Of a stretch of DNA of 64,000 bases, positions 31,880-57,295 are shown in pieces (position 1 is the stretch's first letter; every line of letters starts with the position of its first letter). The stretch lies in contig JAJYPP010000001.1 of NCBI GenBank assembly GCA_021795235.1, forward strand, positions 62,001-126,000. The letters run 5' to 3'. A model generated the notes under the pieces. That model ran no database searches. It was not told where the DNA came from and worked only from the letters and a program-made list of their open reading frames with translations. The position numbers and the translations under genes were made by a program. The DNA is from a bacterium. Its GTDB lineage: Bacteria > Chloroflexota > Dormibacteria > Aeolococcales > Bog-877.

Positions 31880-32213
31880 CCGGGGATGGGGAACTGTTGC
31901 TCGTGCGACGTGCTGTGGTTGGCGCTGATGAGCTTCAAGGGGCGGTAGCCACTGCACAAGATCTCCGAGACTGGCAGGACATACCCAGCCAAAGCGGTGT
32001 AGTTGACGCCGCGGCCCCGCCCGCCGGCGAAAGCAGCGACGGCCAGGACGCTGGATCATCGTGTCGTGCCCCCGGGTCTCCTGCAGCGGCTCTGGCCAAG
32101 CAACGCAGTACTCCCGGAGTGGGCGGCGGCGGCGCCTGGGCAGTGGGGCGTGGTGTAGTCGTCGCCCTCGGGGAGAGGTCCTCGGCGGGGCCACAGCCCG
32201 GGTGCTCACCAGC
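31880..32213 (+). mobile_element. Internally deleted IS607-family relic with both ends retained
   Basis: Bases 31880-31940 align without gaps to 55455-55515, the left end and first tnpA codons of the IS607-type copy further right (48 of 61 identical by my count). The sequence then jumps to the tnpB 3' end: 31954-31980 matches 57014-57040 in 23 of 27 positions and still reads AQDLRDWQD. Near 32170-32213, GGGAGAGG and GGTGCTCACCAGC echo the right end at 57212-57244. About 1.5 kb of coding interior is missing. It lies between the AAA ATPase gene and tRNA-Ala. No protein is expected from it. Confidence 0.7.
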
Positions 32214-54483: not shown

Positions 54484-55356
54484 TCATTTCCAGAGCGCAA
54501 ACTCCGGTAGCTTCTCAGAACAGCTAACGATCCTGAGCGATGGCGTGCCTTCACGTCCTGGTCCCCAGTCCCCGTACGGACGGACTGGGGAGCCGTAGAC
54601 GTTGCGGGGGAAGCCACGGCCCAGAGGCTCGCCACGAGGGCGGTGCCTGATTATCCGCTCGGTGCTGCTCGCACTGCTTTCGCACAGGGCCTGGCTGCTG
54701 GCCTCGGGCACCTGCCCCTCACGACGCTGTTCCGCAAGCCCTTGCGACCCGGCGGAGGCGGGGAGGCTGCGCTTGGCCTCTGCGGAGAGGATACCGTACA
54801 TGCGTCCGCTAAAGGTGGTCACCAGCGACATGAAGTCGTCCAGCAGCTCGGGCAGGCCCCCGGCCGCTCCCCTCTCGTGGAGCACCTCGACCTTAACCCC
54901 GTCGCGTAGGAGGAGCAGTTCCAGCCAGGTGGTCCCAAAGCGCGCCAAGCGGTCCGCGTGGGTTACGGCCAGCACTTCGAAGCGCCCCTCCTCGGAATCT
55001 TTGAGCACCCGTTCGAGTCCCCGTCGGCTCTCAAGAAGCCCGGACCCCCTGTCCTGGTAGACGGCGACCAGACGAGTCCCGAAACGAGCGCGCAACTCGG
55101 CCTCCTGAGCCTCGAGTGAACTCTCCTGGCCGGTGGTGCCCGATACCCGGACATAGCTCGCCACCCGACTCTCACCCGACGGTCGGCTCTCTCCCGAGTC
55201 GCTCCGGAGAGCGTCCACGGCAGCGTCCACGGCACTGATTGGGAGGCGCCGCTCCCGTCCCACCCACGCGACTTCGATCCCGCCGGTGTCGGCCCATCTG
55301 CGCAGCGTCAGGGGATGGATACGGAGACGCCGTGCGGCAGCGCCGAGACGGAGCAT
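54484..55356 (-). CDS. tnpA: IS607-family serine recombinase TnpA with fused read-through tail
   Basis: This is a 290-residue protein. A MerR-like HTH (LGAAARRLRIHPLTLRRWAD) at 4-23 is followed by a resolvase catalytic domain with Ser in YVRVSG (about 67-72) and the ADRLARFG helix. IS607 TnpA normally ends near the SGRMYGILSAEAKR region at about residue 195-205. Here about 85 extra residues follow, rich in Arg, Pro and Ser, which probably represent read-through into the element's right end. No tnpB lies downstream on this strand. The catalytic residues look intact, so it could act on its own ends or in trans. Confidence 0.85.
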   Translation of the reverse strand: MLRLGAAARRLRIHPLTLRRWADTGGIEVAWVGRERRLPISAVDAAVDALRSDSGESRPSGESRVASYVRVSGTTGQESSLEAQEAELRARFGTRLVAVYQDRGSGLLESRRGLERVLKDSEEGRFEVLAVTHADRLARFGTTWLELLLLRDGVKVEVLHERGAAGGLPELLDDFMSLVTTFSGRMYGILSAEAKRSLPASAGSQGLAEQRREGQVPEASSQALCESSASSTERIIRHRPRGEPLGRGFPRNVYGSPVRPYGDWGPGREGTPSLRIVSCSEKLPEFALWK

Positions 55357-55454
55357 CTCTGGTCAACTTGGAGTCATGGCGATAGCAAAGCATTGTTACG
55401 CGCGTCGGGCCACGGTTAGCTACCCTGCCCCTAGCCACAGTGCCGGAACACGTG
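54484..55454 (-). mobile_element. IS607-family copy 1 (tnpA only, tnpB lost)
   Basis: This copy consists of the tnpA gene plus its flanks. The stretch beyond the normal tnpA end contains a strong hairpin: CCCCAGTCC (54563-54571) pairs with GGACTGGGG (54582-54590) around a loop with CCGTACGG, the sort of structure found in the omega-RNA/right-end region of tnpB-bearing elements. The outer ends are not defined; coordinates bracket the coding part and the divergent gap. Confidence 0.55.
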
Positions 55455-55502
55455 CCGGGGATTGCGAACAGTTGCTCGTACGATGAGCTATAGTGGGCGG
55501 AG

Positions 55503-55790
55503 ATGAACTTGAAGGAGTGGGCGAGGCTACAGGGCATTCATCCGGTGAGCGCATATCGGTGGTGCCGGGATCGGTTTGCCCGCTTCGGCGCGGGATATGT
55601 GGAGGCCGCGTTGTCCGCGCAGGGACGCCAGCTGCGGGTGGTGGACCCCGTCGAGGTCGACGACGACCTGGGGCGGGATGTGACCGAGATCCTCACCTCA
55701 CTGTGCGCCCGCCTCTACGGCCGCCGAGCAGCGAAGAATCGGGCAGCGCGATTAACCGCCACGGTGGCCGGGATAGGATGCGCTTCATGA
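55503..55790 (+). pseudogene. tnpA: IS607 tnpA with internal deletion of the recombinase domain
   Basis: This is a 95-residue frame. The N-terminal MNLKEWARLQGIHPVSAYRW is the IS607 TnpA helix-turn-helix start. The C-terminal VVDPVEVDDDLGRDVTEILT and SLCARLYGRRAAKNRA are the end of the same protein. The roughly 100 residues between them, with the catalytic serine, are missing and the frame is preserved across the join. The product could still bind the element's ends and might act as a dominant-negative inhibitor. The stop overlaps the tnpB ATG (ATGA). Confidence 0.8.
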
Positions 55791-57295
55791 CCACAGTGGC
55801 GGGCGAACACGAGGCCAGGAAGAAGCGGGCTCCGAAGGGGAAGTTCGCAATCCCCGACGGCTGGGTCGCCCGCGGCTTCAGCTTCGAGGTCGAGTGGCCC
55901 GAGGACAAAGAAGTTGCCTCGTCGATCCGCTCCCAGTTCGGCGGCCGACGCTACGCCTTCAACTGGGGTCTTGGCCAAGTCAAGGCCGACCTGGACGCCC
56001 ACAAGACCGATCCCGCCCACGAGTCGGTTAAGTGGAACCTCTACTCGCTGCGCAAGCGCTGGAACGCCGAAAAGGCGGCTATCGCACCCTGGTGGGCGGA
56101 GAACTCCAAGGAGGCGTATGCCACCGGGATCGCCGACCTTAGCGTGGCGCTCAAGAACTGGTCCGACTCCAGGCAGGGAAAGCGCAAGGGCCGCAGGGTC
56201 GGGTTCCCCAAGTTCCGGTGCCGGCACAAGGATCGGGCCCGGGTGCGTTTCACGACTGGCGCGATCAGGGTCGAGCCCGACCGGCGCACCGTCACCCTGC
56301 CTGTCATCGGCACCCTGCGCCCGAAGGAGAACACTCGCCGCCTGGAGCGCCTGCTCGGCAAAGGCTCGGCCCGGGTCCTCAACGCCACCCTCAGCCAGAG
56401 ATGGGGGCGGCTCTTCGTCTCCTTCGGTTGCATCGTCGAGAACCATCCCCGGTCCATGCCGACCGGGGAGCGAGCCGGCGTCGATCTCGGGATGCGGTCC
56501 CTGGCCACCATCGCCGACACCGACGGCAACATCATCGAAGTTCCCAACCCCGCCCCCCTGCGGGCGACGCTCACCAAGCGCCGCCGGGTCGGGCGGCAGC
56601 TGTCCCGACGCATCCCCGGCTCGCTGGGGCACAGCGCAGCGAAAGCCAAGCTCGCTCGCCTCGACCGCCGCTGCGTCAACCTGCGCCAGCAGGCGTCCCA
56701 CCAGCTCACCACCTGGCTGGCGAAAACCTACCGCGAGGTTGTGATCGAGGACCTCGATTTGGCGGCCATGAAGAAGGGCATGGGGCGCCGGGCGTTCCGG
56801 CGTTCGGTGTCCGACACAGCGCTCGGCCGGATCAGGCCCCAGCTCACCCACAAGATGGGGTGGCGAGGAACTCAGCCTACGGTCGCCAACCGTTGGTTCG
56901 CCTCATCACTCATCCATCACGGGTGCGGCTGCCGGCTGATCGAACCCAAGAAGCTGGCCAAGCAGGTCATCTGCGCAGTGACGGGTGAGCCGGTCGACCG
57001 CGACCGCAACGCTGCGCAAGACCTCCGTGACTGGCCGGACTATGCCAGTTGTGGCTCAGTTGGAGCCACGGCCCCGTTCGTTCCCGGGCCGTCCTCGGAC
57101 GGTACAGGCGGCGGTTCAGATGCCGAGCCACTCGGCACCTGGAGAGCGGAAGTAAGACCCCCGCTTCGGCGGTGCGCGTTCCGCGGTGAGGTCAGAACCG
57201 AACCCGGCAACGGGAGAGGAACCCCGAGCAGGGGTGCCACCAGCAGTGGGCTCACTAGAGTTCACTCAATGGCAGCGGTGCAAGGGAGAACTTGA
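55787..57295 (+). CDS. tnpB: TnpB RNA-guided endonuclease (IS607-associated, RuvC type)
   Basis: This is a 502-residue protein starting at ATG 55787 in an ATGA overlap with the truncated tnpA; the frame upstream is not used. RuvC acidic residues are present: Asp in GVDLGMRSLATI, Glu in VVIEDLDLAAM and Asp in VDRDRNAAQDL. The zinc ribbon between RuvC-II and III is degenerate: relatives have two CxxC pairs, here HHGCGC and VICAVTGE remain. After DLRDW come about 95 residues encoded by the likely omega-RNA region. TnpB proteins cut DNA guided by that RNA at the excised donor site. Nuclease competence is plausible but uncertain. Confidence 0.85.
   Translation: MTTVAGEHEARKKRAPKGKFAIPDGWVARGFSFEVEWPEDKEVASSIRSQFGGRRYAFNWGLGQVKADLDAHKTDPAHESVKWNLYSLRKRWNAEKAAIAPWWAENSKEAYATGIADLSVALKNWSDSRQGKRKGRRVGFPKFRCRHKDRARVRFTTGAIRVEPDRRTVTLPVIGTLRPKENTRRLERLLGKGSARVLNATLSQRWGRLFVSFGCIVENHPRSMPTGERAGVDLGMRSLATIADTDGNIIEVPNPAPLRATLTKRRRVGRQLSRRIPGSLGHSAAKAKLARLDRRCVNLRQQASHQLTTWLAKTYREVVIEDLDLAAMKKGMGRRAFRRSVSDTALGRIRPQLTHKMGWRGTQPTVANRWFASSLIHHGCGCRLIEPKKLAKQVICAVTGEPVDRDRNAAQDLRDWPDYASCGSVGATAPFVPGPSSDGTGGGSDAEPLGTWRAEVRPPLRRCAFRGEVRTEPGNGRGTPSRGATSSGLTRVHSMAAVQGRT
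57040..57250 (+). ncRNA. Putative omega-RNA (reRNA) scaffold at the tnpB 3' end
   Basis: In IS607/IS605 elements the guide RNA covers the tnpB 3' end and stops at the right end. Here the region holds a chain of GC hairpins, for example GCCGAG/CTCGGC, CCCCGC/GCGGTG, CGGAAC-type arms and ACCCC/GGGGT, and is conserved in position in the relic at 31981-32213. The guide would be the sequence 3' of about 57245. This is a prediction from location and structure only. Confidence 0.35.

What the first reader, a model, noticed from the sequence alone, without database searches (positions are those of the whole stretch)
54484..57295. Head-to-head IS607 copies with complementary losses
The minus copy keeps a complete TnpA but no tnpB. 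The plus copy keeps TnpB but its TnpA has lost the catalytic domain in frame, leaving the HTH joined to the C-terminus. Only the pair together has both functions. The internally deleted TnpA could still bind ends and regulate transposition. The two TnpAs are not close relatives (different HTH and tails), so this is probably a nested insertion rather than a duplicated element.
Basis: partly seen in the sequence, partly recalled or inferred. Interest (0 to 1): 0.55.

Follow-up and report, generated by a model that had tools for sequence, protein, structure and literature searches.

The report
Two neighbouring, separately decayed IS607 elements
Two distantly related small jumping genes of the IS607 family landed side by side in the same gap between genes of an uncultured bacterium and each lost a different part; this is ordinary transposon decay, although the RNA-guided nuclease gene in one of them still looks preserved.

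Summary
The observation largely holds. Minus element (54509-55425): tnpA with HTH and serine-recombinase core, no tnpB; from about residue 198 its C-terminus is replaced by read-through into the right end. Plus element (55459-57278): full-length TnpB, and a tnpA with an in-frame 291-nt deletion (95 aa against 192 in relatives).
The nested reading is wrong. About 33 bp of host DNA separate the elements and match an empty site in a congener; 15 of 15 relatives holding both flanks have no room for either element. These are two independent insertions.
The deleted tnpA is private (junction once in 18 genomes). TnpB is not visibly decaying: RuvC residues and its clade's variant zinc ribbon are present, dN/dS against three copies in the genome is 0.21-0.27, and its 3' region has a conserved RNA fold.
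All four full-length plus-family TnpB copies found in this assembly have a broken tnpA, three with shared lesions, while open tnpA frames and at least 33 gene-less mini-elements lie elsewhere. Complementation, if any, would be genome-wide, not specific to this pair.
Verdict: ordinary decay in a known family; low interest.

The parts
54509..54716 (-). Right end of the minus IS607 element, about 96% identical to right ends at G000:C132, C95, C96 and C111
   Evidence: RNA fold not clearly better than shuffles (z -1.20)
54484..55356 (-). minus tnpA ORF, 290 aa: HTH and serine-recombinase core native to about residue 198, then read-through tail; tnpB deleted. The last codons lie past the element end, in host DNA
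55357..55425 (-). Left end of the minus element, beginning GGGTAGC in element orientation
55426..55458 (.). Host spacer between the two insertions; 55427-55452 aligned to the empty intergenic site of G002:C13
55459..55502 (+). Left end of the plus element (GG-TTGCGAACAGTTGC type)
55503..55790 (+). plus tnpA, 95 aa, with a 291-nt in-frame internal deletion (junction within 55552-55583)
55787..57295 (+). tnpB ORF, 502 aa; TnpB proper to about 57031, the rest runs through the right end and out of the element
57012..57278 (+). Right end and omegaRNA-like structured region of the plus element

Best explanation
Two IS607-family elements of different subfamilies inserted independently, left ends facing, at two sites about 33 bp apart in a short intergenic region (beside a CvpA/trypsin-like gene and a small gene without a Pfam match). 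One element lost tnpB and the end of tnpA by deletion. The other lost the middle of tnpA by an in-frame 291-nt deletion, most likely between short imperfect direct repeats (CCGRGAY-GG type) that lie exactly 291 nt apart in three full-length relatives. The plus element is also a mosaic: left end and tnpA belong with open-tnpA elements, tnpB and right end with a lineage whose tnpA is dead, switching near 55806-55812. Shown: ends, empty site, deletions, mosaic pattern, constraint on TnpB. Inferred: TnpB with the structured right end can still act as an RNA-guided nuclease, and any movement of this copy needs a TnpA in trans, more likely from open own-family copies elsewhere than from its neighbour.
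For: Empty site with host spacer; in 15 of 15 relatives in which both flanks were found the interval (62-686 bp) is at most about 61 bp longer than the window's host bases there. Ends fixed by other copies. Junction of the deleted tnpA: 1 place in 18 genomes. Open tnpA frames at G000:C34 and C25. Repeat spacing 291 nt in C34, C25 and G008:C14. Of 94 diagnostic sites, up to 55806 the window follows the open-tnpA elements at 43, the dead-tnpA lineage at 6, neither at 2; from 55812 on it follows the dead-tnpA lineage at 37, the open at 4, neither at 2. TnpB dN/dS 0.21-0.27 against C3, C160, C103. RNA fold of the plus right end z -2.50; in 18 right ends not of mini-element type 101 of 126 changed pairs stay paired against 63.5 expected.
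Against: The genome is a fragmented bin (174 contigs, contamination 6.97%) in which IS607 sequences often end contigs, so the mosaic or a deletion could be an assembly chimera; no reads were available. The direction of the tnpA/tnpB swap is not settled: the dead-tnpA lineage could be the recombinant. Some TnpB pairs have higher dN/dS (up to 0.44, with the damaged G002:C132 copy, among the 24 pairs printed).
Confidence: 0.86

Rival explanations
1. Nested insertion: one IS607 element inserted into the end of the other.
For: The elements lie only about 33 bp apart in opposite orientation.
Against: The spacer aligns to the empty intergenic site of G002 and each element has its own left and right end.
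Confidence: 0.03
2. The pair is a working unit: the minus TnpA moves the plus element and the deleted TnpA regulates by binding ends.
For: Left-end tips of the two families agree at 13 of 16 positions; the deleted ORF stays open.
Against: Right ends show no detectable likeness; TnpAs are 29% identical; the minus TnpA lost the end of the region that corresponds to helix E, and removing all of helix E made IS1535 TnpA defective in paired-end complexes (PMC6188088, passages seen); the deleted TnpA is private to one copy; open own-family tnpA frames exist elsewhere.
Confidence: 0.05
3. Assembly artefact: chimeric joining of repeated IS607 copies produced the deletions or the mosaic.
For: Related right and left ends sit at contig ends (C132, C95, C96, C111, C43, C143, C99, C86); contamination 6.97%.
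Against: The locus is inside a 224-kb contig, the host spacer is coherent with the empty site, the related ends differ from the window copy by about 4% (right) and 17-19% (left), and the tnpA deletion fits a repeat spacing of 291 nt.
Confidence: 0.08

Closest known systems
IS607 family insertion sequences (tnpA serine transposase + tnpB)
   Same: HTH followed by serine-recombinase core in TnpA, tnpB downstream in relatives, ends shared with other copies
   Different: Each copy here lacks part of one gene or all of the other
IS607 loci with pseudogene tnpA and TnpB (30% of TnpAs in two-ORF loci; PMC11061315, passage seen)
   Same: TnpB and guide-RNA region next to a broken tnpA
   Different: Here the break in the window copy is an in-frame deletion; the paper names frameshifts and internal stops
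MITE-like IS derivatives; for IS200/IS605 the PATEs (recalled; the word occurs in two papers of the listing, not read)
   Same: Same ends as a gene-bearing element, internal genes lost; at least 33 full copies in this genome
   Different: The window plus copy still carries tnpB

Membership tests
IS607 family (plus element) | serine-recombinase TnpA with N-terminal HTH | tested here: not met
   catalytic core deleted in this copy; relatives C34, C25, G002:C54 have it. It is a derivative, not an intact member
IS607 family (plus element) | TnpB with RuvC residues D, E, D | tested here: met
   D233, E321, D404 and D406 invariant in 12 sequences; aligned to solved TnpB 8h1j; which residues are catalytic is recalled
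IS607 family (plus element) | left and right ends shared with other mobile copies, GG at the ends | tested here: met
   a few copies lack GG at the left tip
IS607 family (minus element) | HTH plus serine-recombinase core | tested here: met
   Pfam Resolvase; HTH_17 below its cut-off; best PDB match ISC1926 TnpA, IS1535 TnpA also found
IS607 family (minus element) | tnpB downstream | tested here: not met
   absent here, present behind tnpA in three 86% relatives; [quoted passage not shown]
TnpB RNA-guided nuclease | structured RNA at the 3' end (omegaRNA) | tested here: met
   no Rfam match
TnpB RNA-guided nuclease | four-cysteine zinc ribbon | tested here: not met
   HHGC...CxxT instead; the first Cys is His in 28 of 28 loci with best segments at 57% identity or more and in 0 of 46 at 43% or less that reach the ribbon, 84 loci searched: a clade trait
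TnpB RNA-guided nuclease | RNA-guided cleavage | not testable with these tools
   needs biochemistry

The most novel reading that the evidence does not exclude
The genome runs a dispersed IS607 economy: tnpA-only, tnpB-plus-omegaRNA-only and gene-less elements coexist, and TnpB with its RNA is kept by selection after its linked tnpA died, acting in trans. For: three copies (C3, C160, C103) share tnpA lesions yet sit at unrelated sites with matching ends; between them tnpB (95.2-96.6%) and right end (95.9-97.4%) are better conserved than left end plus tnpA (88.6-90.2%), unlike two elements with open tnpA and tnpB (86.8 and 86.2 against 88.9%). Against: RNA pairing is only weakly kept within mini-element group M1 (49 of 81 changed pairs against 39.5 expected) and not within M2 (9 of 24 against 8.0); between the M1 and M2 consensus 10 of 20 changed pairs stay paired.
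Probability: 0.3. Interest if true: 0.45.

Novelty: new member of a known kind. Interest (0 to 1): 0.22.

Why it matters
It corrects a suggestive reading: apparent complementary loss in adjacent elements is here two independent insertions. The wider pattern in the same genome, where the nuclease and its RNA outlast the linked transposase, bears on whether TnpB is kept for its own sake.

Tried and rejected
Nested insertion: rejected by the empty site. A conserved mini-TnpA regulator: not supported, junction found once in 18 genomes and no other tnpA hit spans both halves. Decaying TnpB because of a lost zinc-ribbon cysteine: rejected, clade trait. Rfam gave no match. Covariation as proof that mini-elements keep a working guide RNA: not shown within groups. 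The idea that mini-element group M2 is a chimera with a foreign right end was not borne out: of 16 further regions with an M2-type right end, 8 hold the whole left-to-right mini-element, one of them (C166) already seen in part; M2's origin stays open. Paper searches for guide-RNA-bearing gene-less IS607 elements showed nothing specific in their listings; that is not proof of absence.

Limits of counts: the DNA searches of the own genome scored only 40 of 153, 39 of 76 and 40 of 92 candidates, so copy numbers are lower bounds. Of 30 full mini-elements (25 in G000, 5 in G002) two orthologues (338 of 338 and 347 of 348 identical) were left out of the 46-row alignment. Of its 18 rows not of mini-element type, 16 have tnpB sequence upstream, whole or part. 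The dN/dS script stopped on an error after 24 of 36 pairs. The pair expectation is a simple model of mine (two thirds transitions), its structure comes from 15 of the same 18 sequences, and counts are not independent of descent.

Full report
What is there. The minus ORF (54484-55356) is an IS607 TnpA: Resolvase match, weak HTH match, best solved relative ISC1926 TnpA. The plus side has a 95-aa ORF and a 502-aa TnpB ORF. Against full-length 192-aa relatives the 95-aa ORF keeps the N-terminal HTH core and the C-terminal part and lacks 291 nt in frame. Imperfect repeats of the type CCGRGAY-GG lie exactly 291 nt apart in C34, C25 (one base off) and G008:C14, at the two sides of the deletion, so a deletion between short repeats explains it.

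Ends and empty site. Other copies in the same genome fix the ends: minus element 54509-55425, plus element 55459-57278. In the congener G002 the matches to the two window flanks are 66 bp apart, and the window's host pieces, including the stretch between the elements, align to that gap. In all 15 relatives in which both flanks were found the interval has no room for either element; two further family genomes, G005 and G011, had no match to the flanking gene. So two insertions happened side by side; their order is unknown.

The minus element. Three relatives (86% identity) have tnpA followed by a long tnpB of another type. The window copy leaves tnpA homology at 54764; 54509-54716 is 96% identical to four other right ends in the genome, three of them over its outer 123-127 bases only; 54717-54763 is unassigned. 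So tnpB and the last residues of tnpA are gone. Removal of the whole helix E region made IS1535 TnpA defective in paired-end complexes (PMC6188088, passages seen); loss of its last part here may weaken the protein (inference).

The plus element. The deletion junction occurs once in 18 genomes. TnpB has the RuvC residues. Its zinc ribbon reads HHGC...CxxT; the first Cys is His in 28 of 28 closer loci and in 0 of 46 more distant loci that reach the ribbon, so this is a clade trait and not damage. dN/dS of the window TnpB is 0.21-0.27 against three copies in the genome and 0.18-0.34 against five relatives. Diagnostic sites show a mosaic: before 55812 mostly as in open-tnpA elements (43 to 6), after it as in the lineage with dead tnpA (37 to 4) (segment identities).

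Wider setting. All 4 full-length plus-family TnpB copies found in the own genome (window, C3, C160, C103; a fifth, C144, is cut by a contig end) have a broken tnpA. C3, C160 and C103 share lesions, so tnpA probably died before they spread, and they sit at unrelated sites with matching ends. Open tnpA frames occur at C34 (only a tnpB fragment follows) and at C25 (contig ends). Relatives with both genes open exist, for example G002:C54 and G008:C14. A broken tnpA beside TnpB is known: 30% of TnpAs in two-ORF IS607 loci are pseudo (PMC11061315, passage seen).

RNA. The right end of the plus element folds better than shuffles (z -2.50). In the 18 right ends not of mini-element type 101 of 126 changed pairs stay paired against 63.5 expected; in mini-element group M1 49 of 81 against 39.5; in M2 9 of 24 against 8.0. 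Consensus folds: 11 of 77 pairs with changes on both sides in 15 right ends, 2 of 87 in M1, 0 of 68 in M2. The minus right end is not clearly better than shuffles (z -1.20).

Mini-elements. At least 33 full left-to-right gene-less copies in the own genome: 25 and 8 more. In 12 copies where BLAST resolves it, the left match ends at window 55517-55521 and the right match begins at 57010-57021.

Judgement. Known family, ordinary decay, independent neighbouring insertions. The nested reading fails; pair-specific complementation is unlikely. Caveats: fragmented and partly contaminated bin; C103 and its flanks are 99.9-100% identical to G002 contigs, so some copies may belong to another bin; no reads.

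Noticed in passing
window 31882-32062 (+): A 3'-truncated copy of the IS607 mini-element family: left end joined to right-end sequence, no genes
   Followed up: partly
L071-L083, L277-L293, L316-L330; G002 L297-L301: At least 33 full gene-less mini-elements in the own genome and 5 in G002; groups M1 and M2 differ strongly in the right end
   Followed up: partly
L064, L065, L066: TnpB-bearing elements with shared tnpA lesions at unrelated sites: probably amplified after tnpA died
   Followed up: partly
L142-L165, L220: TnpB clade in Dormibacterota, Mycobacterium and others with a variant zinc ribbon (HHGC instead of CxxC)
   Followed up: partly
L223, L225: tnpA of the minus type followed by an unusually long tnpB-like open frame (571 and 523 codons between stops, running off the fetched stretch)
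   Followed up: no
L066 versus L303 and L305: G000:C103 and two G002 contigs are 99.9-100% identical including flanks, hinting at cross-binning or very recent exchange
   Followed up: no
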